A DNA stretch of 64,000 nt, taken from assembly GCA_023014365.1 (NCBI GenBank), contig JAEBUN010000012.1, forward strand, positions 1,178,001 to 1,242,000, given 5' to 3'. The translations under genes and the position numbers were made by a program. This document shows, piece by piece, positions 10,491-31,200 of the stretch; within the stretch, counting starts at the first letter, position 1, and the number at the start of each line of letters is the position of its first letter. The stretch is from Lepiota brunneoincarnata. Lineage: Eukaryota; Basidiomycota; Agaricomycetes; Agaricales; Agaricaceae. Under the pieces are notes generated by a model, which worked only from the letters and a program-made list of their open reading frames with translations, was not told the origin of the DNA and did no database searches.

Positions 10491-10601
10491 ATGTGAGGGA
10501 GGAAACATGCTCACAAGTGGAACTTCACACATGCTCCCTCCCCAGCATTGTGCTATCAATCCCAACATGTCTCAACTCCTGAGGCATTGTGCTTCCCAGT
10601 G
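10491..10601 (+). repeat. Gypsy-B 3' LTR, first piece
   Basis: Starts TGTGAGGGAGGAAAC, the same first 15 bases as the solo LTR at 25891. It is interrupted at CAGTG (10597-10601), the target duplication of the old Gypsy-A, and continues at 34948. Confidence 0.65.
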
Positions 10602-10968
10602 TGTCATATCCATGCCAACTCAGAGTCTAATCATTTAAACTTTGGCTTCTCAACTCCACATGTGCTCCACACAATAACCCTCTGCCCTCCAACTCAGCCC
10701 CAACTTGCTCCTACTGCAACCCACTGCCCCAATCACATGACCACCTCCACACATGCCATGGTCACCTGACCCTTGGTGTCTCTATTTCCCAGTCTCCATT
10801 TCCTATCTATAGTCAAGATATGTTATTAGTCTCCATATTTGTACTGGTTTCCATTCCATTTGTAATCCATTTGTAATCCATTTGTAACTATATCAGTCTC
10901 TGCTTTGCTCCACACGTAGTCAGTATGAGTCATAGTTTGTAAGGCCAGTAGTATATATACCATAGGTA
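10602..10968 (+). repeat. Old Gypsy-A 5' LTR, first piece
   Basis: Starts TGTCATATCC, like the intact family LTRs. It is cut at AGGTA (10964-10968) by a solo LTR of the same family and resumes at 11625. Confidence 0.85.
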
Positions 10969-11619
10969 TGTCATATCCATGCCAACTCAGAGTCTAATCA
11001 CTTAAACTTTGGCTTCTCGATTCCATGTGTGCTCCACACAACAACCCTCTGCCCTCCAACTTGGTCCCGACTTGCTCCAACTGCCCCAATCATGCAACCA
11101 CCTCCACATGTGCTGTGGTCACCTGACCCTCAGTGTCTCTAGTTCCAGTCTCCATTTCCTGTCTGTAGTCAAGATATGTTATTGGTCTCCATACCTGTAC
11201 CAGTTTCCATTCCATTTGTAATCCGTTTGTAATCTGTTTGTAACTATATCAGTCTCCGCTTTGCTCCGCATGTAGTCAGTACAAGTCATAGTTCATAAGG
11301 CCAGTAGTATATATACCATAGGTACTTGGCTTGTACTCTTCAGTCTGATAATCGAATCAAGCAGCGGACCAGCTTCCCGTTCCATATCCTCTCCTCTCTT
11401 CTGCCTCGCTCTGCTTCAGCTCCAACTTCCTGAAATACGGACTAGGACAGTAGGAGGGCACAGCACACAAGCTGAGGCTGCAAGTCCAACCCCCCGCCTG
11501 AAGTACTCTGCCTCAGTTCCAAAGTCTATGTACTGACTTTGCCCTGTCCCCCAGTGCCCTTATATCAAGGATACCACCCCGACCCTCTGCTTCGGTCCCA
11601 ATCCACACTGGCTCTAACA
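10969..11619 (+). repeat. Solo LTR of the Gypsy-A family, inserted in an older Gypsy-A LTR
   Basis: Complete TGTCATATCC...GGCTCTAACA LTR of 651 bp, flanked by the duplication AGGTA (10964-10968 and 11620-11624). No internal region remains, so it probably arose by recombination between the two LTRs of a full insertion. Confidence 0.88.
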
Positions 11620-12894: not shown

Positions 12895-13095
12895 TGTTGG
12901 ATTTAAGGAAATCAGCGAGAAAAGCAGGGACCCATTGCAAACGTGCGGGGGTTTGTCTCTGTTTGTACCTATTATATACACCTGGTAATAATAAGACTCT
13001 AGAAATGAAGTAAAACAATAAAAGTAATCGGAAACAGAAATGAAATAGAATAATAACTGAGTATCCAAGCCAGCAGAGCGCTCGATATTCTAACA
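12895..13095 (-). repeat. 5' LTR of the gag-only element (201 bp)
   Basis: Partner of 11677-11877. The gag leader starts directly inside it on the minus strand. Confidence 0.88.
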
Positions 13096-13100
13096 GCTCC

Positions 13101-13343
13101 CTGTTCCATATCCTTTCCTCTCTTCTGCCTTGCTCTGCTTTGGCCCCAATCTCCTGAAATACAGACTTGGACAGTAGGAGGGCACAGCACATAAGCTGAG
13201 GCCATAAGTCCAACCCCCCACCCAAAGTACTCCACCTTGGTCCTGAAGTCTATGTACTGACTTTGCCCTGTCCCCTGGCTACCTTATATCAAGGACACCA
13301 CCCCAATCCCCTGTTTTGGTCCTGATCTGCACTGGCTCTAACA
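13101..13343 (+). repeat. Old Gypsy-A 5' LTR, last piece
   Basis: Resumes after the GCTCC duplication and ends GGCTCTAACA. The internal region then starts GTATTATCAGACTC, the same as in the young copy. Confidence 0.85.
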
Positions 13344-13396
13344 GTATTATCAGACTCAAACTCCTCCCGTCCACCACACTCTAAATTTTTCTAACC

Positions 13397-14799
13397 ATGG
13401 TCTCTTGAACAGTTACCTGGACTTGTACTCTGGTAGCTCCAGCCGCTCACCATAGCAAATGCATCATTCAACAATCTCCTTCCAAGGAACTGCAACCCAA
13501 CTCCCTGAGGGCTTCTTGCTCTTGCTGACAATTGGTTGCACCCTTGACTCCAGACTGGTTTTCTGAAGATATACAACCCTCACTATTCCAGACCCCCAAT
13601 GGCCCCAATGAAGGCCCCAACCCCAATCCTGATCCCAGTGACCCTGGTGATCCTGATGACTATCCTGACAATGGGGACAGGCCCCTGGGTGATGACAAAC
13701 TATCAGACAACAGCAACAACAACAACAACATCCCACCTGGCAACAACTGAGACAACCATGATAGACTCCTGCTTCAAGTTTTCCAATGCATAGCCAACCA
13801 AATGGACAGCCATGGGAACTCTCAAGCCCCACAGCCCCCCTGAACTCCCTGTACCAAAGCTCATGAACCTGACATCTTTACAGGTTCCGACCCTGCCAAA
13901 CCCAAACCCTTCCTCTTCCAATGCTGACTCTATTTCCATACTAACCTGGCCCAGTTCACTATCCCTGCCACCAAGGTCAACTTCGTGTTGACATACCTCA
14001 CAGGTGTGGCACAGCAACACTTCAAAATTGGCCTTAATGAGGCTGACAACCATGGAATAATACACAACTGGATCAAGGACTGGGACCAGTTCACCCTGGA
14101 ACTGCAGACCAATTTTGGTCCCACAGATCCGACTGGAGAAGCTGCTGAGCAGCTTGACTCCCTCCAAATGCACTACAATGAGAAGATTGCTGTTACAATG
14201 TTGATTTCCTCCATCTAGCTGGCCAAATCCACTGGGGTGACAAAGTATTCTGTCGCTGCTACTACAAAGGCCTCCCCAATCACATCCAGGACATTCTGTC
14301 CAATCGGCCTGATAGCAAGCCTGACACCTTCATCGAAATGCAAGCAGCAGTGATGAAGATTAATGCTTACTACTGGGAGTGCCAACGCAAGAAGGCCCAC
14401 ACCAAAGCTGTTTCAGACCTGACCACCTCTAGGAAACCTGGAGGCAATCCATCCCCTTCCACCTTGACCAACCCCCAACTTGCCACCAAGCCTGCCAATA
14501 GTAACAACAAAGGCAGCACCCCCAACAACAGCTTCAAGGGCAATCCACCCAACCCATCTGCTGGTCAGAAATTGGCCCCACCCAAATCCAACCTTACTAG
14601 TAAACTTGGTAAGGACAGTAAATTAACCCCTGAGGAACATCAACAATGTTTGGACAATAACCTCTGCCTTGTCTGTACAGATCCCAATCACAGGGCTGCC
14701 AATTGTGACAAGAAGAAATTCCCTGATGCCAAGGCTAAAGGCCAACAGGCTCAGCTTCCCAAGACAGACATGCTGGCTCTCCCAAGCTTGGAAAAATAA
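13397..14799 (+). pseudogene. Old Gypsy-A gag, decayed
   Basis: Aligns along its length with the intact gag at 16814-18220. The fourth codon, CGA in the intact gene, is TGA here. Later stops and a frameshift near 14200 follow the same pattern. The zinc knuckle CLVCTDPNHRAANC is still readable near 14667-14710. The end keeps the GAA AAA TAA context that corresponds to the presumed frameshift site of the young copy. Confidence 0.88.
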
Positions 14800-16099
14800 T
14801 TGGTGGTCCTCAGGCCTCTGCACAGACTGAGGATCACATTGAACTCTGCTTTGCTCCAGAGAGTTTCTGTCTCAATGCATCTGCTCTTTCTGACCCAAAC
14901 TCTTTTCACATTACATTGACTTCTCCTTTAGTTACTTCTTTATCCTCAGTTTCCACTCCTGTACTCTCTGCTTTGGACCTGCTTTCTACAATGGACAATG
15001 TAGTTAGTTCTGATTTTTTGTCTTTTCCTCCTTTCAAAGCTCTTGTTGATAGTGGTTCTACTTACTGTTTTGTGGACTCATCTTTTGTTCATTCTCATAG
15101 TATTCCAACCTCGTCCATCCCAGCTATTGAACTTCGGTTATTTGACAGGACCTCAAATGCCTACATTACAGAGCTTGCACAACTGCCTGTATCCTTCCCC
15201 TCTGGTGAATCTATCATTTTGGACACTTATGTCACCCAGCTCAACTCTTCCTGTTCTGTGGTCTTAGGACACAACTGGCTCACCTGCTACAATCCATTGA
15301 TTGACTAGGCTTTGGGCAGTATCACTTTCCAGCCACCCCTACTCAAGAATCCTGCTTCTGTCCCTACCTGTGTTGCACCTGCATCAGCCCTGCCTTCAGC
15401 CAACCCTAACTCTCCTGACCTAGGTTCACCACCCCTGTCCAGGACCTCATCCCAATCTGTCCCCCTTGCAAAACCGCACATATCCCTGATAAACACTCCT
15501 GCCTTTATCTGCGCTGCCAAGCTCCCTGGCTCCCAACAATTCCAAATCAACCTCTCCACTGCCTCCGCATTGGCTGCATCCTCTTCTGTCTCTGAAGACC
15601 TGGCTGACCTCTCATCCATCCCCGAGGAAGACCATGAGTTCACTGATGTTTTCAGTAAATTGCATGCTGACACACTTGCTCCACACCACCCTTACAATCT
15701 CCAGATTAACCTAGAGGATGGCAGTCAGCCTCCAGTCAGTACCATTTACTCTCTTTCACAATCAGAGCTTGGAGCTCTACATGATTTTATTGACAAACAT
15801 TTATCCATTGGTTTCATTTGCCCTTCCACTTCTCCTCATGGAGCCCCAGTCCTCTTCGTCAAGAAAAAGGACAGCTTCCTCCATTTATGTGTTGATTTTA
15901 GAGGTCTCAACCATATTACCAAGAAGGATTGCTACCCCCTTTAACTCATCTCTGACCTCTTAGACACCCCTCGCAAAGCCCACATACATATATACCAAAA
16001 TTGACCTCCATCACACTTACCATCTTGTCCACATTGCTGACAGTGACAAATGAAAGACCACCTTTCAGACCTGCTATGGCTCCTTTGAATGGATGGTCA
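14793..16099 (+). pseudogene. Old Gypsy-A pol, left half (protease to mid-RT)
   Basis: Protease (LVDSGSTY near 15041) and the first RT blocks are readable. A TAG replaces the Trp after the protease (15306-15308) and more stops follow near 15942 and 16050. The half ends at ATGGTCA inside the RT, exactly where the young copy inserted. The reading resumes at 23975. Confidence 0.88.
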
Positions 16100-16760
16100 T
16101 GTCATATCCACACCAAACCTAGAGCTTAACCATTAGGCTTCGGCTTCTCGACTCCACGTGTGCTCCACACGACAACCCTATGCCCTCCGACTCGGCCCCA
16201 ACTGGCTCCGACCGCAACCCTTCGCCCCGATCACGCGACCTACCGCTACACGTGCCACGATCACCTGACCCTCGGTGCTCCCATTGTCCAGTTCTCCATT
16301 CTCCGTCCGTAATCAGAATACGTTACCAGTCTCCATACCCGTACCGGTCTCCATTCCATTCGAAATTATTCGTAATCCGCTTGTAACCATATGGGTCTCC
16401 GCTTCGCTCCGCACGTAGTCAGTACAAGTCATAATTCGTCGAGCTAGTAGTATATATACCGTAGGCACTTGGCTTGTACCCCTCAGTCTGATAATCGAAT
16501 CGAGCAGCGGACCAGTCCCCTGTTCCCTATCCTCCTCTCTCCCTGCCTCGCTCCGCTTCGGCCCCGACTTCCTGAAATACGGACTCGGACAGTAGGAGGG
16601 CACAGCACATAAGCTGAGGCCGCAAGTCCACTCTCCGCCCGAAGTACTCTGCCTCGGTCCCGCCGTCTACGTACTGACGTCGTCCCGTCCCCCGGTTACC
16701 TTATACCAAGGATACCACCCCGACCCTCCGCTTCAGTTCCGACCCGCACCGGCTCTAACA
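16100..16760 (+). repeat. 5' LTR of young Gypsy-A (661 bp)
   Basis: TGTCATATCC...GGCTCTAACA. A TATA-like run (TAGTATATATACC, near 16447-16460) lies in the middle and would serve the sense transcript. CpG content is high compared with the older LTRs. Confidence 0.95.
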
Positions 16761-16813
16761 GTATTATCAGACTCAAACTCCTCCTGTCCATTACACTCTA
16801 ATCCTTTCTAACC
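16761..16813 (+). promoter_or_regulatory. Leader and candidate primer-binding region of young Gypsy-A
   Basis: The 53 bp between the 5' LTR and the gag ATG start GTATTATCAGACTC. A tRNA primer-binding site would be expected right at the LTR edge. The tRNA could not be named from the sequence alone. Confidence 0.4.
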
Positions 16814-18220
16814 ATGGTCTCTCGAACAGTCACCCGTCCCCGCACTCGGGTAACTCCAGCCGCTCGCCGTAGCAAACGCATCATTCGACAATCTCCTTCC
16901 GAGGAATTACAACCCGACCCCCCAAGGGTTTCTCCCCCTCGCCAACAATCCATCGTGCCCTCAACTCCAGACCGGTTTAGTGAAGATATTCAACCTTCAC
17001 TATTCCAGACTCCCGACGGCCCCGACGGTGGCCCCGACCCAAATCCTGATCCCAGCGACCCTGGTGATCCCGACGACTACCCTGACAATGGGGACGGACC
17101 CCCGGACAACGACGAACCGTCAGACAACAACGACAACAATAACAACATTCCGCCTGGCAACACCCAAAATGACCATGACCAACTCCTGCTCCGAGTTTTC
17201 CAACGAATAGCCGATCAAATGGACGGCCGTGGGAACTCTCAACCCCCACAGCCTCCCCGAACCCCCCGTACCAAGGCTCCCGAACCTGACATCTTTACAG
17301 GTTCCGACCCCACCAAACTCAAACCTTTCCTCTTCCAATGTCGACTCTACTTCCGTACTAACCCGGCCCAGTTCGCTATCCCTGCCACCAAGGTCAACTT
17401 CGCGTTGACGTACCTTACTGGCGTGGCCCAGCAACACTTCGAAATCGGCCTCGACGAGGCCGACAACCACGGAATAATGCACGATTGGATCGAGGACTGG
17501 GATCAGTTCACCCTGGAACTGCAGACCAATTTCGGTCCCGCGGATCTGACCGGAGAAGCTGCTGAGCAGCTTGACTCCCTCCGAATGCGCTATGACGAAA
17601 AGATCACCGTCTACAATGTCGACTTTCTCCGTCTGGCCGGCCAACTCCGCTGGGGTGATGAGGTATTCTGTCACCGCTACTACAAAGGCCTCCCCGACCG
17701 CATCCAGGACATTCTGTCCAATCGGCCCGATGGCAAGCCCGACACCTTCATCGAAATGCGAGCAGCAGCGATGAAGATCGATGCTCGCTACTGGGAACGC
17801 CAACGCGAGAAGGCCCGCGCCAAAGCCGCTTCGGACCCGACCGCCTCTAGGAAACCTGGAGGCAACCCATCCCCTTCCACCGCGACAAACCATCAACCTG
17901 CCACCAAGCCTGCCAACAGTAACAACAAAGGCAGCACCCCCAGTAATAACATCTTCAAGGGCAATCCGCCCAACCCGTCCGCCGGTCAGAAATCGGCCCC
18001 GCCAAAGTCCGACCTTACTAGTAAACTTGGTAAGGACGGTAAATTAACCCCCAAGGAACGTCAACGACGTTTCGACAATAACCTCTGCCTTGTCTGCGCA
18101 GATCCCAATCACAGGGCTGCCAACTGCGACAAGAAGAAATTCCCTGACGCCAAGGCTAAAGGCCGACAGGCTCAGATTTCCGAGACAGACGCGCCGGCTC
18201 TCCCGAGCTCGGAAAAATAG
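16814..18220 (+). CDS. gag: Gag of young Gypsy-A, 468 aa, intact
   Basis: Structural protein of the retrotransposon particle. A basic N-terminus (about residues 1-30) leads into a Pro/Asp/Asn-rich low-complexity region (about 70-115). The retrotransposon capsid domain follows (about 150-320, with KPFLFQCRLYF, FALTYLTGVAQQHF and WDQFTLELQTNFG). A basic linker precedes the CCHC zinc knuckle CLVCADPNHRAANC at residues 425-438 (CX2CX4HX4C). The ATG lies 53 bp after the LTR. The gene ends GAA AAA TAG, and pol is open in the -1 frame across this point, so Pol is probably made as a Gag-Pol fusion by frameshifting. Confidence 0.93.
   Translation: MVSRTVTRPRTRVTPAARRSKRIIRQSPSEELQPDPPRVSPPRQQSIVPSTPDRFSEDIQPSLFQTPDGPDGGPDPNPDPSDPGDPDDYPDNGDGPPDNDEPSDNNDNNNNIPPGNTQNDHDQLLLRVFQRIADQMDGRGNSQPPQPPRTPRTKAPEPDIFTGSDPTKLKPFLFQCRLYFRTNPAQFAIPATKVNFALTYLTGVAQQHFEIGLDEADNHGIMHDWIEDWDQFTLELQTNFGPADLTGEAAEQLDSLRMRYDEKITVYNVDFLRLAGQLRWGDEVFCHRYYKGLPDRIQDILSNRPDGKPDTFIEMRAAAMKIDARYWERQREKARAKAASDPTASRKPGGNPSPSTATNHQPATKPANSNNKGSTPSNNIFKGNPPNPSAGQKSAPPKSDLTSKLGKDGKLTPKERQRRFDNNLCLVCADPNHRAANCDKKKFPDAKAKGRQAQISETDAPALPSSEK
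18213..18220 (+). promoter_or_regulatory. Candidate -1 ribosomal frameshift site at the end of gag
   Basis: Gag ends with a run of five A followed by the stop codon (A-AAA-TAG). A Lys tRNA on the last AAA can slip back one base onto another AAA. The -1 frame is open from here into pol, with no ATG for about 140 bp. The decayed older copy keeps the A run and the following reading. It is not a perfect X-XXY-YYZ heptamer, so a P-site slip or termination-reinitiation remains possible. Confidence 0.5.
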
Positions 18221-18357
18221 TCGGCGGTCCTCAGGCCTCTGCACAGACTGAGGATCGCATTGAACTCTGCTGTGCTCCAGAGAGTTTCCGTCTCAATGCG
18301 TCCGCTCTTTCCGATCCAAACTCTCTTCATATTACATTAACTTCTCCTTTAGTTACT

Positions 18358-21300
18358 TTGTTACCCTCTGTTTCCGCTCCTGTACTCTCCGCTTCGGACC
18401 CGCTTTCTACAACGGACAATGTAGTTAGTTCTGACTTTTCTTCTTCTTTTTCTCCTTTCAAAGCTCTTGTTGATAGTGGTTCTACTCACTGTTTTGTGGA
18501 CTCTTCTTTCGTTCGTTCTCATAGTATTCCAACCTCGTCCATCCTGGCTATTGAACTTCGGTTATTTGATGGGACCTCAAACGCCTACATTACGGAGCTT
18601 GCGCAACTGCCTGTATCCTTCCCCTCCGGTGAATCTATCATTTTGGACACTTATGTCACCCAGCTCGACTCTTCCTGTTCTGTGGTCTTAGGACACAACT
18701 GGCTCACCCGCTACAATCCGTTGATTGACTGGGCTTTGGGCAGTATTACTTTCCGGCCATCCCTACTCGAGAATCCTGCTTCCGTCTCTACCTGTGTCGC
18801 ACCCGCATCGGCTCCGCCTATGGCCGCCCCTGACTCTCCTGACCTAGGTTCACCACCCCTGTCCGGGACCTCGTCCCAATCTGTCCCCCTTGCGAAACCG
18901 CACATCTCCTTGATAAACGCTCCTGCCTTTATCCGCGCTGCCAAGCTCCCTGGCTCCCAACAATTCCGAATCAATCTTTCCGCCGCCTCCGCATCGGCCG
19001 CGTCCTCTTCTGTCTCCGAGGAACCGCCTGACCTCTCGTCCATCCCCGAGGAATACCACGAGTTCGCTGACGTTTTCAGTAAATCGCGTGCTGACACACT
19101 TGCTCCACACCGCCCTTACAACCTCCAGATTAACCTAGAGGATGGCGGTCAGCCTCCGGTCGGTACCATTTACTCCCTTTCACAATCGGAGCTTGGAGCT
19201 CTACGTGATTTTATTGACGAACATTTATCTATTGGTTTCATCCGCCCCTCCACTTCCCCTCATGGTGCCCCGGTCCTCTTCGTCAAGAAAAAGGACGGCT
19301 CCCTCCGCTTATGCGTTGATTTTAGAGGTCTCAACCGTATTACCAAGAAGGACCGCTATCCCCTTCCGCTCATCTCCGACCTCTTAGACTCCCCTCACAA
19401 AGCTCGCGTATATACCAAGATCGACCTCCGCCATGCCTACCATCTTGTCCGCGTTGCTGACGGCGACGAATGGAAGACCGCCTTTCGGACCCGCTACGGC
19501 TCCTTCGAATGGATGGTTATGCCTTTCGGCCTCACCAATGCCCCCGCCACTTTCCAGCGGTTCATGAACGATATATTCAAGGACATGCTCGACGTCTGCG
19601 TTACTATCTACCTTGACGACATTCTGATATACTCCGACAACCATAGTATCCATTGTGACCAAGTCAAGGAGGTCCTCAAGCGGCTCCGTCAACACGGTCT
19701 ATACGCCCGCCCCGACAAATGCCAGTTCCACTCTGACACAGTGGAATATCTCGGCTACATTCTCTCCCCCAACGGCCTCCGAATGGACCAATCTAAGGTC
19801 AAGACCATCCAGGAGTGGCCTGAGCCTAAGAAAGTCAAGGACATCCAGTCCTTCTTAGGCTTCGCCAATTTCTACCGTCGCTTCATTCACGGATACTCCG
19901 ACATCGTCGTTCCGCTCACTCGCCTCACCCGCAAAGACGTGAAGTGGAATTTTACTGATGATTGTCGCGAGGCCTTTAACTCCCTGAAGGAAGCATTTAT
20001 CTCCGCCCCCGTCCTCACTCCTTGGGTCCCCGACGCTCAGATCATTGTCGAGACCGACGCCTCCGACTACGCCCTTGCGGCAATCCTCTCTATCGTCACC
20101 AACGATGGGGAGGTCCATCCCGTTGCATTCCATTCCCGCACCTTTAACACGGCCGAACTCAACTATGACACTCACGACAAGGAACTCCTGGCGATATTCG
20201 AAGCCTTTCGCATCTGGCGGCACTATCTCGAAGGTGCCCCCCTTGCTATTGATGTGGTCACTGACCACAAGAACCTCGAATACTTCTGCACCACCAAGAT
20301 CCTGACTCGCCGCCAAGCTCGTTGGTCCGAGTTCCTATCCCAATTCCACCTCGTCATCCGTTTCCGACCCGGCCGCCTTGGCACCAAGCCTGACGCCCTA
20401 ACTAGACGATGGGACGTCTACCCTAAAGGGGGGAATAGCGACTATGCATCAGTCAACCCGCACAACTTCCGGCCTGTGTTCACTCACGAACAGCTTGCGG
20501 CCTCCGTCCGTGCCACCACTCTTTACGCCCCTTCCCTTCGCGCAGCTGTAGTCATGGACCTTGATCAGCTACACCGCGATATTCTCGCCGCCCTACCAGC
20601 GGATCCGACCGCTTCCGCCCATCTTGCCAGCCCAGAAGGCCGTTGGTCAGTTAATGATAAAGGTTTCCTCCTCTTGGACGACAGAATCTACGTCCCTGAC
20701 GCCGACAATCTCCGACTTCGGGTCCTCCAGTACAAGCATGATCACGTCCTAGCCGGCCACTTCGGTCAGAATAAAACGCTGGAACTCATCCGGCGCGAAT
20801 ACACCTGGCCTAGCGTCCGCACCTTCGTCAAGGATTTCTGTAAGTCTTGCGTCACCTGTATGAGGTCTAAACCCCAGCGCCATCGCCCCTACGGTCTCCT
20901 TAAGCAACTCCCCATCCCCGAACGCCCTTGGAATTCAATCTCCATGGACTTCATCGAAAAACTTCCCGCCTCCTCCGGCTACGACGCCATCCTGGTAATC
21001 GTTGACAGACTCACCAAACAATCCCTCTTCATTCCGACTTATGATACCGTCACTTCCTCCAACCTTGCCCGCCTATTCGTCCTCCACGTCTTCTCTAAGC
21101 ACGGCGTGCCCGAACATGTTACCTCCGACCGCGGCTCCGAATTCGTCTCCCACTTCTTCCGCTCATTGGGACAAGCCCTTGACATGAAGCTACATTTCAC
21201 CTCGGGCTACCATCCAGAAGGCGACGGACAAACGGAACGCACCAACCAGACCCTCGAACAATACCTTCGGGTCTATTGTAACTACCAACAGGACAATTGG

Positions 21301-22023
21301 TCCGAATTACTACCCCTAGCTGAGTTTGCTTACAACAACGCTCCTAGTGCCACCACCGGTATCTCCCCATTCTTCGCTAATAAAGGATACCATCCGAACA
21401 TCACAGTTCATCCTGAACGCGATCTTGCCTCCGCCCAGGCCCGCCATTTTGCTGTTGATCTCGATGACCTACATACCACCCTGAAGTCCGAAATAGCGCT
21501 AGCCCAGCAACGTTATCAGACCTCCGCCGACGCCCGCCGACTCCCCGCCCCGGACTTCAAGGTTGGACAAAAGGTATTCGTGAAAGCCCAATTCTTCCGC
21601 ACCACCCGTCCCTCCAAAAAACTCTCCGAAAAGTACCTTGGGCCTTATGAGATCATTGCACAAGCAGGTACTCACTCCCTTACACTCCGACTTCCCAACT
21701 CCATGCGTGGAGTACACCCAGTCTTCCATGTTTCCATGCTCGAACCAGCCACACCTAACACCATACCCGCCCGATCGGATCCGCCGCCCGCGCCGGTTTC
21801 CATTGACGGTGAACCAGAATATGAGATTGCCCGCATCGTCGACTCTAAGATCGATCGGCGCCGCGCGTGCAAGCTCCTCTATAAAGTCATCTGGTTAGGT
21901 TACGAAGACACTGAAGAAGAGTCCTCGTGGTTGCCAGCCACCGAGCTTGAACATGCTATAGATCTCGTAGAGGCTTTTCATTCCTCTTACCCTGCAAAGC
22001 CTGGTCCTCTTCACTCACTTTGA
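18358..22023 (+). CDS. pol: Pol of young Gypsy-A: protease, RT, RNase H, integrase, chromodomain (1,221 aa from the first ATG)
   Basis: The frame is open upstream to 18214, so the true N-terminus probably comes from frameshifting. Domains: aspartic protease with D39-S-G; RT with Y-L-D-D at 418-421; RNase H with T-D567-A-S; integrase zinc finger HHCC at about 794-835; integrase core with D864, D924 and E960 (35 residues between the last two). After the core come a GPY-type module (LGPYEII) and a C-terminal chromodomain (about 1150-1215, with LYKVIWLGYED and SSWLP). The gene has no stops or frameshifts and all active-site residues are present. The stop lies 69 bp from the stop of the antisense gene, tail to tail. 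Confidence 0.96.
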   Translation: MLPSVSAPVLSASDPLSTTDNVVSSDFSSSFSPFKALVDSGSTHCFVDSSFVRSHSIPTSSILAIELRLFDGTSNAYITELAQLPVSFPSGESIILDTYVTQLDSSCSVVLGHNWLTRYNPLIDWALGSITFRPSLLENPASVSTCVAPASAPPMAAPDSPDLGSPPLSGTSSQSVPLAKPHISLINAPAFIRAAKLPGSQQFRINLSAASASAASSSVSEEPPDLSSIPEEYHEFADVFSKSRADTLAPHRPYNLQINLEDGGQPPVGTIYSLSQSELGALRDFIDEHLSIGFIRPSTSPHGAPVLFVKKKDGSLRLCVDFRGLNRITKKDRYPLPLISDLLDSPHKARVYTKIDLRHAYHLVRVADGDEWKTAFRTRYGSFEWMVMPFGLTNAPATFQRFMNDIFKDMLDVCVTIYLDDILIYSDNHSIHCDQVKEVLKRLRQHGLYARPDKCQFHSDTVEYLGYILSPNGLRMDQSKVKTIQEWPEPKKVKDIQSFLGFANFYRRFIHGYSDIVVPLTRLTRKDVKWNFTDDCREAFNSLKEAFISAPVLTPWVPDAQIIVETDASDYALAAILSIVTNDGEVHPVAFHSRTFNTAELNYDTHDKELLAIFEAFRIWRHYLEGAPLAIDVVTDHKNLEYFCTTKILTRRQARWSEFLSQFHLVIRFRPGRLGTKPDALTRRWDVYPKGGNSDYASVNPHNFRPVFTHEQLAASVRATTLYAPSLRAAVVMDLDQLHRDILAALPADPTASAHLASPEGRWSVNDKGFLLLDDRIYVPDADNLRLRVLQYKHDHVLAGHFGQNKTLELIRREYTWPSVRTFVKDFCKSCVTCMRSKPQRHRPYGLLKQLPIPERPWNSISMDFIEKLPASSGYDAILVIVDRLTKQSLFIPTYDTVTSSNLARLFVLHVFSKHGVPEHVTSDRGSEFVSHFFRSLGQALDMKLHFTSGYHPEGDGQTERTNQTLEQYLRVYCNYQQDNWSELLPLAEFAYNNAPSATTGISPFFANKGYHPNITVHPERDLASAQARHFAVDLDDLHTTLKSEIALAQQRYQTSADARRLPAPDFKVGQKVFVKAQFFRTTRPSKKLSEKYLGPYEIIAQAGTHSLTLRLPNSMRGVHPVFHVSMLEPATPNTIPARSDPPPAPVSIDGEPEYEIARIVDSKIDRRRACKLLYKVIWLGYEDTEEESSWLPATELEHAIDLVEAFHSSYPAKPGPLHSL

Positions 22024-22092
22024 GTTACTGACCACACATCACACCAAGAAACAACCATGTATTAAACAAACCCAAAAAACAACCCCGTACAA

Positions 22093-23178
22093 CTACCTAT
22101 CGGTGTCGTCTCCAGAGAGCCCGGGCGACCCATTCACTTCTTCCATCAAATCCTGCACCTCCTCCTCCGAAGCGGGCCCGACACTCCCCTCCGAACCCTC
22201 CGTCTCCGAAAAATTTCCACTCGACCAATTTCCGTCCACCTGAGCCTCCCAACGCCGTAGTTGCTCGTAGCGGCCAGCAAGCAACCCCATCTTGTCGACC
22301 TTTTCCCCCAACCGAGCGATGGACCGCTCAATTCGCACCTCCAGGATGTAGATTTTCTTGACGGTCTCCTGGTGCCTTTCTTCGATGAGCCGTTTCAACT
22401 CTACAAGGTCCATCAATTGGCATCCATCATAATACAGGATTCCTTACTCACCTTCGAATTGCTGGCCCGACAAACCACCGGCCCCGCTCGGCTCCGTCTC
22501 CTCTTGACCCCCGCACCGTTTTTTCATTTTGCTGCACCGATGGCAACTCCTGGTGTTACTAAGAAACTATCAGTATGTAGTCCGGAAATCCTCCAAAATG
22601 ACTTACCCGCCGGCCACCTCACATGGGACCCCGTCTCGCTGGCACCTCCAGCAGGGATTCTCGCCCCCAAATACGTGCACATTGCCCCGTCGCGGGGCCG
22701 CCCTCGCCTTTGCCTTCCCCTTACCCTTACCCCCTGAATCCCCGGAGTCCTCCTCCCCCTCTTCCTCCTCGTCCCTCGCCTCATCCCTATCCGTATATTC
22801 GGAATCCGACTCCTCCGTATCTACTTGCATCGGGTCTTCCGACAGACGGCTCGACGAGGCCCCTGTGGTCGTCGCAACGAGTCGGGCCCGAATCGCCCGA
22901 CGCTCTGCCTCGGCGGTTTCCTCTTGCTGCCTCCTGATCTCCTCCGCATATCGCTCCTTCGCGCGCTCTTCCGCTTGTTGCTGGTGCAGCTCTATGAGCC
23001 GCCGTCGCTCCTCCTCTTGGCGCTCTATTGCCAGCCGCCGCTCCTCCTCCTCTCGCCGTTCCTCTTCTTCTAGCCTCTCGATTTCGAGCCGCTCTCGTTC
23101 CTCTCGCTCCGCCTTCTCTCTCAGTAATCGTGCCTTGCGCTCCGTAGCGGTCGGTTGACGGGATGGTTGTCTGCTCAT
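22093..23178 (-). CDS. Antisense, spliced accessory gene of young Gypsy-A: coiled-coil protein with a Zn2Cys6-like cluster (328 aa)
   Basis: Three exons on the strand opposite pol: 22607-23178, 22452-22558 and 22093-22400. Intron 1 (22559-22606, 48 bp) is GTAAGT...TTCTTAG and intron 2 (22401-22451, 51 bp) is GTGAGT...CTTGTAG. Joined exons total 987 nt, an exact multiple of three with no stop. The protein has a Glu/Arg-rich coiled coil (about 10-95), an acidic Ser/Glu/Asp stretch (about 115-150), a Lys/Gly/Arg patch that could be a nuclear signal (about 150-168) and six cysteines at 176, 179, 186, 196, 199 and 206. That pattern, CX2CX6CX9CX2CX6C, fits the fungal Zn(II)2Cys6 consensus, and intron 1 splits it. 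A second coiled coil (about 228-275) and an acidic tail follow. The ATG has a TATA-like box about 55 bp upstream. The older copy keeps both introns and all six cysteines. Function is unknown; DNA binding and element self-regulation are inference. Confidence 0.8.
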
Positions 23179-23230
23179 GGGGGTAGGAGGTCAAGTTGTG
23201 TCCTCTCAAATTCGAATCAGTTCACCTTTT

Positions 23231-23240
23231 TTTTTATACC
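23231..23240 (-). promoter_or_regulatory. TATA-like box of the antisense gene
   Basis: GGTATAAAAA on the minus strand, about 55 bp before the antisense ATG and outside the LTR. The degraded older copy keeps GGTATAAAAAC at the matching place (near 27607-27616) although the first exon next to it is mostly deleted. Confidence 0.5.
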
Positions 23241-23313
23241 CTCGTGGAATTTTCCGGTGGGCCCCGGTCTAGACCGCCTTGGGCCTCGAGGCTCGGCCCT
23301 AAAGGGGGGGCAC

Positions 23314-23974
23314 TGTCATATCCACACCAAACCTAGAGCTTAACCATTAGGCTTCGGCTTCTCGACTCCACGTGTGCTCCACACGACAACCCTATGCCCT
23401 CCGACTCGGCCCCGACTGGCTCCGACCGCAACCCTTCGCCCCGATCACGCGACCTACCGCTACACGTGCCACGATCACCTGACCCTCGGTGCTCCCATTG
23501 TCCAGTTCTCCATTCTCCGTCCGTAATCAGAATAAGTTACCAGTCTCCATACCCGTACTGGTCTCCATTCCATTCGAAATTATTCGTAATCCGCTTGTAA
23601 CCATATGGGTCTCCACTTTGCTCCGCACGTAGTCAGTACGAGTCATAATTCGTTGAGCTAGTAGTATATATACCGTAGGCACTTGGCTTGTACCCCTCAG
23701 TCTGATAATCGAATCGAGCAGCGGACCAGTCCCCTGTTCCCTATCCTCCTCTCTCCCTGCCTCGCTCCGCTTCGGCCCCGACTTCCTGAAATATGGACTC
23801 GGACAGTAGGAGGGCACAGCACATAAGCTGAGGCCGCAAGTCCACTCTCCGCCCGAAGTACTCCGCCTCGGTCCCGCCGTCTACGTACTGACGTCGTCCC
23901 GTCCCCCGGTTACCTTATACCAAGGATACCACCCCGACCCTCCGCTTCGGTTCCGACCCGCACCGGCTCTAACA
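23314..23974 (+). repeat. 3' LTR of young Gypsy-A (661 bp)
   Basis: Same length and ends as 16100-16760. It differs at about 10 sites by eye, nine being CG against TG or CA. It is preceded by the polypurine tract. Confidence 0.95.
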
Positions 23975-26825
23975 GGTCATGCCTTTCAGCCTCACCAATG
24001 CCCCTGCCACCTTCCAGTGGTTCATGAACAACATATTCAAGGATACACTTGACATCTGTGTTACCATCTATCTTGATGACTTTCTGATATACTCCAATAA
24101 ACATAGTATCCATTGTGACCAAGTCAAGGAGGTCCTCAAGCGGCTCTGCCAACATGGTCTATATGCCTGCCCCGACAAATACCAGTTCCACTCTGACACA
24201 GTGGAATATCTTGGCTACATTCTTCTACCCAACAGTCTCCGAATGGACCAATCTAAGGTCAAGACCATCCAGGAGTGGCCTGAACCCAAGAAGGTCAAGG
24301 ACATCCAGTCCTTCTTAGGTTTTGCAAATTTCTATTGTCGCTTCATTCATGGTTATTCTGACATTGTTGTTCTGCTTACCCACCTCACCTGCAAAGATGT
24401 GAAATGGAATTTCACCAACAAATGCTGTAAAGCCTTCAGTTCCCTGAAAGAAGCATTCATATCTGCCCCCATCCTCACTCCTTGGGCCCCTGATGCTCAG
24501 ATCATTGTCAAGACCAACACCTCCAACTACACCCTTGCAGCTATCCTCTCTATCATCACTGATGATGGTGAGGTCCACCCTGTTGCATTCCATTCCTGCA
24601 CCTTTAACATGGCCAAATGTAATTATGGCACCCATGACAAGGAACTCCTGGTGATATTCAAAGCTTTTCACATCTGGCGACACTACCTAGAAGGTGCCCC
24701 CCTTACTATTGATGTAGTCACCAACCACAAAAACCTTGAATACTTCTGCACCACCAAAATCCTCACTTGCCACCAAGCTCATTGGTCTGAGTTCCTGTCC
24801 CAATTCCACCTTGTCATCCATTTCCAACCCAGCCGCCTCTGCACCAAGCCTGATGCCCTAACTAGATGATGGGATGTCTACCCTAAAGGGGGGAATAGTG
24901 ACTATGCATCAGTCAACCCACACAATTTCCAACTGGGATTCACCCATGAACAGCTTGCAGCCTCTGTCCATGCCACCACTCTTTATGCTCCTTCCCTTCA
25001 TGCAGCTGTAGTCATGGATCTCAACCAGCTACACCACAATATCCTCACCACTCTACCAGCAGATCCAACTGCCTCCACCCATCTTGCTAGCCCAGAGGGC
25101 CATTGGTCAGTTAATGATAAAGGTTTCCTCCTCTTAGACGACAGAATCTATGTCCCTGATGCTGACAATTTCTGACTTTGGGTCCTCCAGTACAAGCACA
25201 ATCATGTCCTAGCCAGCCACTTTGGTCAGAATAAAATGCTGGAACTCATCTAGCACGAATACACCTGGCCTAGTGTCCACACCTTCGTCAAGGATTTCTG
25301 TAAGTCTTGTGTCACCTGTATGAGGTCTAAACCCCAGTGCCACCACCCCTGCGGTCTCCTCAAGCAACTCCCCATCCCTGAATGCCCTTGGAATTCAATC
25401 TCCATGGACTTCATTGAGATACTCCCCACCTCCTCCAGCTACAATGCCATCCTAGTAATAGTTGACAGACTCACCAAGCAATCCTTATTCATCCCCACCT
25501 ACGATACTGTCACCTCCTCCAACCTCACCCACCTATTTGTCCTCCACGTCTTCTCCAAGCACAGTGTACCTGAACATGTTACCTCCAACTGTGGCTCTGA
25601 ATTCATCTCTCACTTCTTCTGCTCATTGGGACAAGCCCTCAACATGAAACTACACTTCACTTTGGGCTACCACCCAGAAGGTGACAGACAGACAGAACAC
25701 ACCAACCAGACCCTGGAACAATATCTCCAGGTCTATTGTAACTACCAACAGGACAATTGGTCCGAATTGCTACCACTAGCTGAGTTTGCTTACAACAATG
25801 CCCCTAGTGCCACTACCGGTATCTCCCTGTTCTTTGCTAATAAAGGATACCATCTGAACATCACAGTTCATCCTGAATGCAACCTCACCTTGTGAGGGAG
25901 GAAACTCGCCTATGTGCAGAATCTGTCCCTGCATCATATTTTCATTTAGGTATTTAAGTAGCACATTTGTACTTAGATCCCTTAGTTCCCAATGACAAGG
26001 ATGTCTCCACTGCCATAAGACCTCCAATAGGCTACAGTGTAACCAGCCTGAAGTTTCTTTCCCTCAGTTTCGCTCTCTCTCTGTCTCTCTTTCTCTCACT
26101 CTCTCAAGTTTCCCTACAATCCCTCACTTAACTGGAGTTGTACTTGTACCCTGTTTCACAAGGTTGAGAAGATGAGCCTGTGGTCATTTCGTCAACCACA
26201 CCTCACCCTTATGATTCTCTTTCCTACAACCTCTGCTCAGGCCTGCCATTGTGCTGTTGATCTTGATGACCTACATACCATCTTGAAGTCTGAAATAGTG
26301 TTAGCCCAGCAACGCTATCAGGCCTCCACCGACATCCGTCAACTCCCCACCCCAGACTTCAAGGTTGGACAAAAGGTATTTGTGAAAGCCCAATTCTTCT
26401 ACACCACCTGTCCCTCCAAAAAACTCTCCAAAAAGTTCCTTGGGCCTTATGAGATCATTGCACAAGCAGGTACCCACTCTGTTACACTCCAACTTCCTGA
26501 CTCCATGTGTGGAGGACACCCTGTCTTCCATGTTTCCATGCTCAAACCAGCTACACCTAACACCATACCCACCTGATTGGACCCACCACCTGCACCAGTT
26601 TCTATTGATGGCAAACCAGAGTATGAAATTGCTCACATTATTGACTCAAATATTGATTGGCACTGCGCATGCAAACTCCCCTACAAAGTCATTTGGTTAG
26701 GTTATGAAGACACTGAAGAAGAGTCTTTGTAGTTACCAGCTACCAGGCTTGAACATGCCATGGATCTAGTAGAGGCTTTCCATTCCTCTTACCCTGCTAA
26801 GCCTGGCCTCCTCCATTCACTCTGA
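23975..26825 (+). pseudogene. Old Gypsy-A pol, right half (RT to chromodomain)
   Basis: Continues the RT broken at 16099. YLDDFLIYS is near 24069-24095. RNase H has TNTSNY where the intact copy has TDASDY. Integrase (about 25190-25900) and the chromodomain (about 26610-26790) follow. Stops at 24867 (CGA to TGA), 25172 and 25250, and others near 26573, break it. A 308-bp solo LTR interrupts it at 25891. Active-site Asp codons in the RNase H (GAC to AAC) and the integrase (SDRG to SNCG) are lost through CpG transitions. Confidence 0.9.
25891..26198 (+). repeat. Solo LTR (308 bp), Gypsy-B-like, inside old Gypsy-A pol
   Basis: Starts TGTGAGGGAGGAAAC and ends TTTCGTCAACCA, similar to both ends of the Gypsy-B 3' LTR. 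It is flanked by CACCT (25886-25890 and 26199-26203). It contains a CT-rich tract near 26065-26108. A few extra bases remain between the right flank and the expected pol sequence. Confidence 0.65.
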
Positions 26826-26884
26826 GTTTTCCACTGATCACCCACCACACCAAGAAACAAAAATTTATTGGACAAGTACAAACT

Positions 26885-27590
26885 GCCTGTCTATGTTGTT
26901 CCCAGAAGTGCAGGACAGCACTGCTGCATCCTCCATCATATCTCACACCTCCTCTTCCAAAATGCCTCCGATGCTCTCCAACCCCTCCATCTCCTCCATC
27001 TCCATAATACCCCTACTTGACCAGTTACCATCCACCTGCACTTCCCAATGCCACAACTGTTCATAGTGGCCAGCTGTCATTTTGACCTTATCCACCTTCT
27101 CCCCCAACCAAGTGATGGCCTTTTCATGCTGCAACTCCATGATGTTGACCTGCTTGAGGGTCTCCCAGTGTCCTTTTTCAACAAGCCTCTTCAACTCTAC
27201 AAGACTTGGTCAGCAATCCTCACAGTCAATGATCATTATTTTACCTTTGAATTGCTGGCTCAACACTGCCCTGGCCCTGCTTGGCTCCATCTCCTCTTGA
27301 CCCCCACACCATTTTTTCATTTTGCTGCACTGATGGCAACTCCTGGTGTTACTAAAAAACTATCAGTATGTAGCCTGGAAACCCTCAAAATGACTTACCT
27401 GCTGGCAACCTCACACAGGACCTCATCTTGCTGGCACCTCCAGCAGGGATTCTCACCCCCAAATACATTCGCATTTCCCCGTCACAGGGCTGCCCTCACC
27501 TTTGCCTTCCCCTTACCCTTATCCCCTGAATCCCCAGAGGCCTCCTCCTCCTTATCTCTTGCCTCATCCCTATCCATGTATTTGGAATTG
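26885..27590 (-). pseudogene. Remnant of the antisense gene in old Gypsy-A
   Basis: Counterpart of 22093-23178. Exon 3 (coiled coil with KRLVEKGHWET), exon 2 and the end of exon 1 can be followed. Both intron borders survive as GT...AG, and the six cysteines of the CX2CX6CX9CX2CX6C cluster are all present. The large N-terminal coiled-coil part of exon 1 is missing: one deletion joins the acidic region to the upstream leader at about 27586-27596, near a short GGAAT/GAAT similarity. The stop codon is also changed. Confidence 0.7.
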
Positions 27591-27687
27591 AACCAGTTCC
27601 TCTGTTTTTATACCCTGCTGGAACTTTCCGATGGGCCCCAGCCTAGACTGCCTTGGGCCTTGAGGCTCAGCCCTAAAGGGGGGGCAC

Positions 27688-27916
27688 TGTCCTATCCATG
27701 CCAGCTCAGAGTCTAATCATTTAAACTTCAGCTTCTCAACTCCACATGTGCTCCACACAACAACCCTCTGCCCTCTGACTTGGCCCCAACTTGCTCTGAC
27801 TGCAACCCACTGCCCCAATTACATGACCACCTCTACACATGCCATGGTCACCTGACCCTTGGTGTCTCTATTTCCCAGTCTCCATTTCCTGTCTGTAGTC
27901 AAGATATGTTATCAGT
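27688..27916 (+). repeat. Old Gypsy-A 3' LTR, first piece
   Basis: Starts TGTCCTATCC after the AAAGGGGGGG tract. It is cut at TCAGT (27912-27916) by Copia-1 and resumes at 34510. Confidence 0.88.
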
Positions 27917-28292: not shown

Positions 28293-31200
28293 ATGAGCTC
28301 TGCAACATCAGATATCCTCCCTTCCTCCGGTCCAAAACTTGACCTGGCAGGATCGAACTGTGCTATCTTCATGCTCAGGTTCAAAGCAGCCATCCAGGGC
28401 AAGGGGCTCTGAGGCCATTTCAATGGTACCGAGATGCGCCCCCAGCTGCCAGACATGACAGCTGCTGCCACAACCACACAGGAACAGACACCCACCACAA
28501 CCCCATCTTCTGTCACAGCTGAAATGGTTGAGAAGTGGGACCGTGACAAATGTGTCATGCATGCCCTACTCATCCAGTGGTTGCCCAACTCCACTCTTAT
28601 GATTGTTGCCTGTGTGATCACTGTCAAAAACATGTGGGACCAGGTAAAACAGGAATACACCTACAAGGGTGCCTTCTCACAGGTACAACTGTGACGTGAG
28701 TTCATGGCAGCACAGTGCCCTGAACGTGGAGATGTCTGAGCCTTCCTAAATGATTTACATGCAAAACACATTGAGCTGTCAATAGTTGGAGTCACCATCA
28801 GTGATGATGACTACAGAAGCACAGTCATTGGTTCCCTACCTTGCTGGTTGGCATCATATGCCTCAGCACAACTATCCTTTGCTCATGTCCATGCTGCCCC
28901 TTCCTTCATAATAGACCCTGAAATCTTGATCATCCTGATCTGTGATGAGTGGGACTGATGTTGAAGCAATAAACCAAAGGGTCCTACCAAAAATGATGGT
29001 GATGAAGCCATGAACATTGAGGGAGGCAGCCAGAAGAGTTCAGGAAAGAGGAACTTCAAAAAGGGGAAGTGCCACAACTGTGGAATCCCAGGCCATTATG
29101 CCTACAAGTGTTGCAAACCAAAGAAAGAAGGGGGAGCAGAAAAGTCAGCACCCAAAGCTTCGAAAAAGGAAGCACCCAAACCTAAACCAGCAAGCATAAA
29201 TGCAGTCATGGATGACTTTGAGGATGAAGCCCTGATGGTGGAAATAGATGATGAGATTGAGATCATGGATGATGATGCCAACTGGGGCATCCCAATTGCT
29301 GCTACAATAGAAGTAAGCAAATTAGAAGATCTCCCCAATTTTGAAGAGACAGACCTACTAGAAGAGGTCTATGCCACCTCTGAAGACAACGAAGTCTTCA
29401 CAGGGCAGGTTCAAGAACAGAACCTCCATACACACATTGAATTATTTGATTCAGGGACATCCAGGCATATCTCACCATATTGAGATGCCTTTGTCAAACT
29501 GCAGAGCATCCCCCCTCGACCCCTTAAGGCTGTCAACAAACAGAGTTTCAGTGCAATCGGGATCAGCAATATAATCCTCAACTTACCAAATGGCAGTACC
29601 ACCTCAAAACTGCATTTATCCAATGTCCTGTACTCACCTGAGGCTGGGTACACCCTCATATCCATTGGATGACTCAACAAAGCTGGATATATGGTCACAT
29701 TTGCAAATGGCAGATGTATTATTCATGAACCAGGTGGAAACAAAATAGCCAAGATCCCACAGAACCAAGCAGCCCTGTACAAACATGTCAGGGAAGGAGA
29801 AATTGAGGTGAACACTGTCTGTGAGACACTCACTCTTGATGAGATGCATCAACAGCTTGGCCACATTGCACCAGCAGCTGTGAAAAGACTTCTATGCGAA
29901 GGAATGGTGATCAGTTTACAACTAGACTCCAACGGAGACACAAACCTGTCCTGCGATTCATGTATATTTGCAAAATCAACACAGCAGCCAATCACAAAGG
30001 CTCAGCAAGCCACAGGAGCAACTAGCTTTGCCCAGGAAATACACTCTGATGTGTGGGGGCCTGCCAAAACAGAGTCACAAAGGGGACATAAATACTATGT
30101 TACCTTCACTGATGACTATTCTCAATGGACACATGTGGACTTCCTATCGAATAAATCTGACACCTTTGATGCATACAAACGGTTTGAGGCATGGTGTGAG
30201 ACACAGTTCCAAGCTTGTGTGAAGGCCCTACATTCAGACAGAGATGGAGAGTACATTGGGAATGACTTTCAGCAGTATCTCAGATCGCAAGGCACAGAGA
30301 TCAAGCTCACTGTGCATGATACTCCTCAGCACAATGGAATAGCCAAACATCATAATTGCACCATCATGGAATGATTCCAAGCCATGAACCACATTGCTTG
30401 TCTCCCAAAATACCTGTGGCCTGAAGGAGTTTGCCACATTGTGTGGCTAATGAACAGAACAGGGACAAAAGCAATTGCAGGGACAACACCCTACAAGGTC
30501 CTGTACAGCAAGAAACCAGATCTTTGAGCAGTACACGAATGGGGAGAGGAATGCTGGGTGCATGAGCCAGGGGTAAATAAAATGGCTGATTGTGCTAAAA
30601 AGGGCTGGTGGCTGGGTTTTGACCCAGAAAGCGATGGTATACAAGTCTGGATACCAGCCATGGGTGCCATAAGGGTAGAATGAAACATCCATTTCAGAAA
30701 GGAGGCAAATCTTGAGGGGGAGAATATGCCAATCAGCAAGATTTGCAGTGAGCAACCACTCACCACACACCAGACCACCATACAACCCTCAAGCCAGCCA
30801 CAAACAAGTGCTGAAACCCCTAGCAAGTCACTAGAGGTCCCAACAAACCCCCCAGAGTCAGTGGTACAACTGCCAACAAAGGCAGACAACCAGGACCTGC
30901 CCCAGAGCGACCATCCACAACATATCCACATGCCAAGCCAAAAAGCTCATGAAATCCTTGAGGGAACAGCCATAACAATGGCTGAGGAGCTAGATTGGGA
31001 GGATGTGCATGCCCTAGCAGCCAAAATGGAGTCCGTTGAGGCATTGGAACCAGGAAGCCTCAAAGAGGCTAGAGAACAAGTGGACTGGCCACTATGGGAG
31101 AGTGCAATAAAGGAGGAGTTAGCCACCCTCAAAGCTGCAGGGACATGGGAACTATGTAGTGGATGCACCACCTGGCATGAATCAAGTTGGCTCAAAGTGG

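What the first reader, a model, noticed from the sequence alone, without database searches (positions are those of the whole stretch)
22093..23178. Spliced antisense gene with a Zn2Cys6-like cluster inside a young Ty3/Gypsy element
Between pol and the 3' LTR, on the opposite strand, three exons join into a 328-residue frame. Introns of 48 and 51 bp have clean GTAAGT/GTGAGT donors and TAG acceptors. Six cysteines spaced CX2CX6CX9CX2CX6C fit the fungal Zn(II)2Cys6 consensus, and the motif exists only after splicing. Coiled coils flank it. An antisense, intron-containing, putative DNA-binding protein carried by an LTR retrotransposon is not something I know to be described in fungi. Antisense genes are known in some plant Gypsy elements and in HTLV-1 (HBZ). 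It could regulate the element's LTR promoter, the host, or integration.
Basis: partly seen in the sequence, partly recalled or inferred. Interest (0 to 1): 0.93.

Follow-up and report, generated by a model that had tools for sequence, protein, structure and literature searches.

The report
Antisense spliced gene in fungal retrotransposon
A mushroom-type jumping gene carries, on its opposite strand, an extra intron-containing gene for a probable DNA-binding protein that has been kept under selection among its relatives, a fungal variant of an antisense-gene layout known mostly from plant retrotransposons.

Summary
Between pol and the 3' LTR of a Ty3 element with a chromodomain, three antisense exons give 328 residues with six cysteines spaced CX2CX6CX9CX2CX6C. 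In 29 diverged relatives from the same genome, the ATG, intron-2 GT-AG and all six Cys codons are kept in 29 of 29, intron-1 GT-AG and a TATA box 52-58 nt upstream in 28 of 29. Between-family dN/dS in the spliced antisense frame is 0.16-0.37 (14 pairs), so it is a real protein gene. Among 21 young copies no clear selection on it is seen, although pol and gag show some.

The cluster is not a canonical Zn2Cys6: its halves sit in swapped order relative to Pfam and to this fungus's own clusters. A heptad repeat follows, a Gal4-like layout.

The novelty claim is too strong: antisense genes at this place are known in plants (Grande, RIRE2, Retand) and a fungus (Boty brtn). New here, as far as searched: introns, permuted cluster, tested selection, mosaic genes. 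Best reading: a self-encoded nuclear regulator of the element. Expression and DNA binding are untested.

The parts
16095..16099 (.). 5' target-site duplication GGTCA
   Evidence: sequence; matches 23975-23979
16100..16760 (+). 5' LTR, 661 bp, TGTCATATCC...GGCTCTAACA
16814..18220 (+). gag (Retrotrans_gag; CCHC knuckle read by eye)
18160..22023 (+). pol: protease, RT, RNase H, integrase, chromodomain; open in another frame overlapping the end of gag
22607..23178 (-). antisense gene exon 1: charged helix, acidic stretch, basic KGKGKAKARAAPRR, first CX2CX6C triad
22559..22606 (-). intron 1, 48 nt, GTAAGT...TAG
   Evidence: GT-AG in 28 of 29 relatives
22452..22558 (-). antisense gene exon 2: second CX2CX6C triad
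22401..22451 (-). intron 2, 51 nt, GTGAGT...TAG
   Evidence: GT-AG in 29 of 29 relatives
22093..22400 (-). antisense gene exon 3: C-terminal heptad coiled coil and acidic tail, stop
23232..23238 (-). TATAAAA box of the antisense gene, 60 nt before the ATG
   Evidence: kept in 28 of 29 relatives
23254..23276 (-). CGG-N6-CCG-N8-CGG half-site array upstream of the TATA box, candidate binding site (chosen post hoc)
   Evidence: exact half-sites in 17, 19 and 20 of 30 rows, other rows nearly all consistent with CpG transitions; shuffles with at least one CGG-N6-CCG 129 of 2000
23301..23310 (+). polypurine tract next to the 3' LTR
   Evidence: invariant in the 13 sequences aligned
23314..23974 (+). 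3' LTR, 661 bp
23975..23979 (.). 3' target-site duplication GGTCA
26982..27703 (-). decayed antisense gene and promoter of the older related element into which this one is inserted

Best explanation
The element carries an accessory gene with its own promoter, convergent with gag-pol. Its spliced mRNA makes a protein with a charged N-terminal helix, an acidic stretch, a basic (nuclear-signal-like) stretch, a Zn2Cys6-type binuclear cluster with swapped halves, and a C-terminal coiled coil. I think it enters the nucleus, dimerises through the coiled coil, binds paired GC-rich half-sites in the element, most likely next to its own promoter and the 3' LTR, and sets the level of element transcription. 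Shown: gene structure, conservation, between-family purifying selection, swapped halves. Inferred: transcription and splicing, nuclear entry, dimerisation, zinc and DNA binding, the target, and whether it activates or represses. Because the gene is antisense, the sense genomic RNA holds only the complement of its introns, so introns survive each round of reverse transcription (inference from orientation).
For: Gene model kept in 29 diverged relatives: ATG 29 of 29, intron 1 GT-AG 28 of 29, intron 2 GT-AG 29 of 29, six Cys codons 29 of 29 while other residues are 72.5% identical to the window protein, TATA box 28 of 29. dN/dS 0.16-0.26 for the window gene against 10 diverged relatives and 0.16-0.37 over the 14 pairs that I chose; four control frames 0.71-1.89. 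Same with loci beside their own pol: antisense 0.16-0.45, pol 0.05-0.30, 10 pairs. Swapped triads: window residues 172-187 match Zn_clus 15-31, L051 residues 194-209 match 1-16, and a profile from 8 host clusters shows both halves in swapped order. Cluster - linker - coiled coil order as in Gal4 (recalled). Precedent: Grande gene23 is nuclear and has its own promoter (PMC7264820, parts 1 and 2 of 3 read); Retand antisense proteins carry a domain predicted to bind DNA (PMC11963269, passages).
Against: No transcript seen: the one database protein found (P0122) begins with intron-2 residues, so it was predicted from unspliced sequence. Polymorphism among 21 young copies gives no clear purifying selection on the antisense frame: singletons 45 N, 2 stop, 35 S; shared 19 N, 2 stop, 4 S, with a transition opportunity of 653 N to 331 S. 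Among 19 of the same copies pol (shared 45 N, 1 stop, 40 S; opportunity 2565 to 1296) and gag (shared 56 N, 2 stop, 64 S; opportunity 938 to 466) do lean to synonymous change, so the antisense gene may be relaxed in the young family. One control frame (-1) also has low dN/dS, 0.25-0.59, though above the true frame in 14 of 14 pairs; a shifted frame of one close pair fell to 0.46. CGG-N6-CCG near the promoter is post hoc, occurs 7 times in the element and never in the LTR. Zinc binding is untested, and the swapped order might not bind DNA like Gal4.
Confidence: 0.5

Rival explanations
1. The protein works in the pre-integration complex (nuclear import or target choice) and not in transcription; the zinc cluster and basic stretch bind cDNA or chromatin.
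For: Basic stretch plus acidic and coiled-coil parts are compatible; PMC7264820 discusses such roles for plant antisense genes (parts 1 and 2 of 3 read).
Against: The integrase already has a chromodomain, a targeting module in other elements (role recalled); the antisense gene diverges faster than pol (dN 0.116-0.185 against 0.018-0.037 in the 9 of 10 pairs left when the close pair L050-L043 is set aside).
Confidence: 0.17
2. The antisense RNA is what matters (dsRNA and silencing, or transcriptional interference); the protein is incidental.
For: Convergent gene with its own TATA box; antisense transcripts can act this way (PMC7264820, part 2); no clear selection on the frame among young copies.
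Against: Between-family dN/dS near 0.2 in the spliced frame, six Cys codons intact in 29 of 29 relatives, introns differing by 23-57% in 14 pairs: selection has acted on the protein.
Confidence: 0.08
3. The protein chiefly acts on host genes, as a captured fungal transcription factor serving the element indirectly.
For: The two halves resemble halves of host Zn clusters of this genome.
Against: I found no host gene with the swapped order, but no search here was built to exclude one; rows look like element copies, though only part of them was fetched. The profile search returned one hit, a near-identical piece of such a gene, among the 7990 candidates scored.
Confidence: 0.15
4. Structural helper: coiled coil plus Cys cluster binds genomic RNA or Gag in the particle.
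For: Coiled coil and Cys cluster.
Against: Gag has its own CCHC knuckle (read by eye); the Cys spacing is that of a DNA-binding binuclear cluster.
Confidence: 0.08

Closest known systems
brtn, antisense gene of Boty-like Ty3 elements (Botrytis cinerea; Zhao et al. 2011, not held; seen as cited in PMC7264820, PMC8365987 and one passage of PMC4227169)
   Same: Fungal Ty3 element with chromodomain; antisense gene between pol and 3' LTR
   Different: I could not read the primary paper; splicing, zinc cluster and selection of brtn not compared. Ascomycete host; here probably an agaric
Grande gene23 (maize), RIRE2, Retand ORF4/TRP28 (plants): aORF-3R class of Vicient and Casacuberta 2020
   Same: Antisense, between pol and 3' LTR, own promoter and nuclear protein (Grande), predicted DNA binding (Retand), kept in most copies
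   Different: Sequence relationship not tested. The parts of PMC7264820 and the passages of PMC11963269 that I saw describe no introns and no Zn2Cys6-like cluster in them (in PMC11963269 'intron' and 'zinc finger' occur 0 times)
HBZ of HTLV-1 (named in a passage of PMC11963269; details recalled)
   Same: Antisense, spliced, nuclear regulator made by a retroelement
   Different: bZIP protein with an antisense promoter in the 3' LTR; here the TATA box lies inside the element, next to the LTR
Fungal Zn2Cys6 regulators (Gal4, Ppr1; PF00172)
   Same: Six Cys with allowed spacing, cluster - linker - coiled coil order (recalled for Gal4)
   Different: Two triads in swapped order; whole-protein score under the Pfam cut-off; cluster placed after a long charged and acidic region

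Membership tests
Ty3/Gypsy chromovirus-type LTR retrotransposon | Flanking LTRs with TSD; RT-RNase H before integrase; chromodomain | tested here: met
aORF-3R (antisense gene between pol and 3' LTR) | Open frame antisense to gag-pol, placed between pol and the 3' LTR, in most copies of the family | tested here: met
   frame open in 15 of 21 young copies
aORF-3R | Protein-level conservation comparable to the element's other proteins | tested here: inconclusive
   dN/dS 0.16-0.45 against 0.05-0.30 for pol in 10 pairs: constrained, but less; within young copies pol and gag lean to synonymous shared variants and the antisense gene does not
aORF-3R | Transcribed from its own promoter | not testable with these tools
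   TATA box conserved in 28 of 29 relatives; no RNA data
Zn2Cys6 binuclear cluster (PF00172) | Six Cys as CX2CX6CX5-12CX2CX6-8C (consensus recalled) | tested here: met
Zn2Cys6 binuclear cluster (PF00172) | Match over the curated cut-off (21 bits), basic triad first | tested here: not met
   15 bits for the whole protein; 21.9 bits only for a 56-residue cut-out and over two stretches; halves in swapped order
Zn2Cys6 regulators | Binds zinc and DNA | not testable with these tools
   no binding data; sequence tools only
brtn family | Sequence homology to BRTN | not tested
   BRTN sequence not held; the profile search scored 7990 candidates and returned only P0122, which is weak evidence

The most novel reading that the evidence does not exclude
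A retrotransposon-encoded, intron-containing transcription factor with a circularly permuted zinc cluster forms, with the half-site array at its own promoter, an exchangeable self-recognition module: families keep the DNA-binding half linked to the LTR-side target and swap the dimerisation half with the pol side, giving family-specific self-regulation.
Probability: 0.2. Interest if true: 0.85.

Novelty: new variant of a known kind. Interest (0 to 1): 0.62.

Why it matters
The role of antisense genes in LTR elements is still unknown even in plants (PMC7264820, parts 1 and 2 of 3 read). This case offers a compact, multi-family fungal example with a recognisable DNA-binding-type cluster, a candidate promoter and clear between-family selection. 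It also shows how an intron-bearing gene can persist in an element that copies itself through RNA: by lying on the other strand. A zinc cluster with swapped halves, if it binds DNA, would be a natural circular permutation of a very common fungal DNA-binding domain.

Tried and rejected
Protein database: residues 155-328 gave 407 candidates and no hit; profile A1 of six proteins gave one hit among the 7990 candidates scored (a capped list), P0122, 98% identical and read from unspliced sequence. The database does hold close pol relatives (Leucocoprinus 84%, Agaricus 83%, best 120 of 7976 listed), but gene predictions in transposons are often absent, so the lack of hits is weak evidence.

Other species: viral contigs with A1 and with pol gave no relative; genome contigs gave L082 (44%, a fungus-like element in a bacterial bin), whose stretch after pol shows no antisense frame that I could recognise by eye, and L083 (30%). 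Plasmid records matched pol only at 25-32%. So spread beyond this genome is untested.

PDB by sequence: nothing significant; best E 1.8 and 0.17, with Zn2Cys6 chains (Pho7, C27B12.11c) among the non-significant rows. Structure prediction not run: the spliced protein cannot be read letter for letter from the DNA, which the tool requires.

Pfam domains other than Zn_clus: none significant; weak TRIM_CC (4 of 6 members, best E 0.05) and VEK-30 (1 of 6, 0.43). Selection within young copies: tested, not clear. LTR as target of a CGG-N6-CCG binder: no such site in the LTR, though CCG-N8-CGG occurs there. Script faults: one search used a wrong gag frame, corrected; the profile search failed on an option and was rerun.

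Literature: ten searches; in the listings shown I saw no antisense zinc-cluster gene in a fungal element. The library lacks most subscription papers, among them Zhao 2011 and Gomez-Orte 2013.

Full report
Observation. The element around them is a Ty3/Gypsy element at 16100-23974 with 661-bp LTRs, GGTCA target duplication, gag, and pol with protease, RT, RNase H, integrase and chromodomain. It sits inside an older, decayed relative that has its own decayed antisense gene at 26982-27703. pol ends at 22023 and the antisense gene at 22093, so the two genes converge with 69 bp between.

Copies. The antisense stretch has at least 40 places in the genome at 98-100% (194 candidates, 40 scored), and the protein has 182 matches, exon by exon, at E up to 10 (332 candidates, 122 scored, list cut). 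I fetched 20 of the 40 places at 9 kb, mostly the ones closest to the window copy; 17 of 20 have both LTRs found, 97.6-99.8% alike; the window copy is 98.5%. With one shorter locus added (L008), the antisense frame is open in 15 of 21 copies; pol is open in 13 of 19 and gag in 13 of 19.

Is it a gene? I fetched 29 diverged relatives (12, 17, chosen for divergence) and aligned them. ATG is kept in 29 of 29; intron 1 has GT-AG in 28 of 29 (47-51 nt) and intron 2 in 29 of 29 (49-51 nt); TATAAAA lies 52-58 nt before the ATG in 28 of 29 (60 in the window; the exception, L043, has a deletion there); all six Cys codons are kept in 29 of 29, against 72.5% identity for other residues and 84.6% for the other residues of 172-211. 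AATAAA follows the stop within 90 nt in 13 of 29, not in the window copy. Introns differ by 23-57% in the 14 pairs. Many of the 29 are decayed, and mosaics L036 and L037 are among them. The codons TGC and TGT are little exposed to CpG decay, so the Cys count overstates constraint somewhat.

Selection. Between families, dN/dS in the spliced antisense frame is 0.16-0.26 for the window gene against 10 of the 12 relatives (the mosaics L036 and L037 left out), and 0.16-0.37 over the 14 pairs that I chose; four of the five control frames give 0.71-1.89, and frame -1 gives 0.25-0.59, above the true frame in 14 of 14 pairs. For five loci with 837 codons of their own pol beside the gene, pol gives 0.05-0.30 and the antisense gene 0.16-0.45 in 10 pairs; shifted frames give 0.46-1.74. 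The 0.30, 0.45 and 0.46 come from one close pair (L050-L043), and the L033 pol piece has two stops. Within the young family the result does not support selection: antisense singletons 45 N, 2 stop, 35 S and shared variants 19 N, 2 stop, 4 S, against an opportunity of 653 N to 331 S; pol (shared 46 N or stop, 40 S) and gag (58 N or stop, 64 S) lean to synonymous change, the antisense gene does not. Of the 107 antisense variants 90 fit CpG transitions; of the 17 others 10 are S and 7 N. I read this as mostly neutral, methylation-driven decay after insertion, but relaxed or altered selection in the youngest family is not excluded. Selection is shown between families only.

Modules. The antisense gene has higher dS than the neighbouring pol in 10 of 10 pairs (for example 0.76 against 0.22). 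L036 and L037 have diverged exon 1 of two different types and switch to window-like sequence (96-100%) within exon 2, just after the zinc cluster, at the 75-bp resolution. One search lists further loci with about 80% identity in the first part and 94-98% from residue 189 on; these may be copies of few events. So in the two mosaics the N-terminal plus zinc part goes with the LTR side and the coiled-coil part with the pol side. Faster evolution of the gene is an alternative to exchange for the dS excess.

The zinc cluster. Spacing fits Zn2Cys6, but the order of halves does not. In Pfam the window's first triad matches Zn_clus positions 15-31 and the second triad of L051 matches positions 1-16. 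The second half of the window alone gave no Pfam match. A profile from 8 host clusters of this genome (of 20 fetched; 12 dropped because no full motif was readable in the fetched frame) aligns the first triad to about 20-33 and the second to 1-22 in the three sequences whose alignments I saw; the fourth had two domains but its printout was cut. A position-score test, built from 8 first and 17 second host triads, prefers swapped over direct order in 3 of 3 (10.1 against -7.4; 1.3 against -6.2; -0.3 against -4.1). It is weak for the last two: taken alone, the first triad of L051 scores slightly better as a first triad. In its leave-one-out control 8 of 8 host first triads and 14 of 17 second triads were assigned rightly. 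Since the two triads of a binuclear cluster are related by pseudo-symmetry (recalled), a permuted cluster could still hold two zinc ions.

Rest of the protein. Residues 10-100 are a charged helix-like stretch rather than a clear coiled coil; 222-285 have a good heptad pattern. Acidic 115-145 and basic KGKGKAKARAAPRR are read from the sequence.

Possible target. Upstream of the TATA box lies CGG-N6-CCG-N8-CGG (23276-23254). Exact half-sites occur in 17, 19 and 20 of the 30 rows without gaps (of 31 rows, window and its relic included); the exceptions fit CpG transitions but for one GGG and one shifted row, while the N6 spacer has 8 forms. But 129 of 2000 shuffles of the promoter hold at least one such site, the motif was chosen after looking, the element has seven CGG-N6-CCG, and the LTR none (it does hold CCG-N8-CGG). 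I keep it as a hypothesis.

Mechanism. Most likely a self-encoded nuclear regulator; see the best explanation. Antisense orientation explains how introns persist: the sense genomic RNA offers their complement only.

Known or new. The class 'antisense additional ORF between pol and 3' LTR' is known (PMC7264820: parts 1 and 2 of 3 read; PMC11963269: passages). Boty brtn is a fungal case (named in PMC7264820, cited in PMC8365987 and PMC4227169, passages; a brtn-like transcript is reported from Monilinia in a passage of PMC5987419; primary paper not held). PMC3248453, a survey of fungal LTR elements, has no occurrence of 'antisense' or 'zinc' in its main text (passages only). In the listings of my ten searches I saw no zinc-cluster or spliced antisense gene in a fungal element. 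Hence: new variant of a known kind. The host is probably an agaric: the nearest named fungal pol relatives listed are Leucocoprinus and Agaricus at 83-84%.

Noticed in passing
about 12895-16099 and 23975-27703: An older related Ty3 element, rich in CpG-decay changes (Arg codons turned to Cys, His and the like, seen by eye), interrupted by the younger one; its antisense gene is decayed at 26982-27703.
   Followed up: partly
28965-30374: Frames reading like Ty1/Copia gag and integrase (CCHC knuckle, integrase-like motif), by eye only.
   Followed up: no
10599-11619: Further LTR-like pieces related to this family in direct repeat.
   Followed up: no
L036 and L037, exon 2: Mosaic antisense genes whose breakpoint lies just after the zinc cluster, with two different 5' parts.
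   Followed up: partly
L043, promoter of the antisense gene: Deletion that removes the TATA box while the protein frame stays open.
   Followed up: no
L008-L028: Antisense-gene variants among young copies are mostly CpG-type transitions (90 of 107), far less so in gag; LTR differences are almost all transitions. This suggests cytosine methylation, unevenly marked along the element.
   Followed up: partly
L082 (VBAU01000528.1): A Ty3 element of fungal look in a bacterial metagenome bin, with a second gag-like frame after pol; probably a contaminant.
   Followed up: no
plasmid records NZ_CP087956.1, NZ_CP065944.1, NZ_CP065945.1: Ty3-like pol (25-32% identity) in records filed as Wolbachia and Bacillus plasmids, perhaps eukaryotic contamination.
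   Followed up: no
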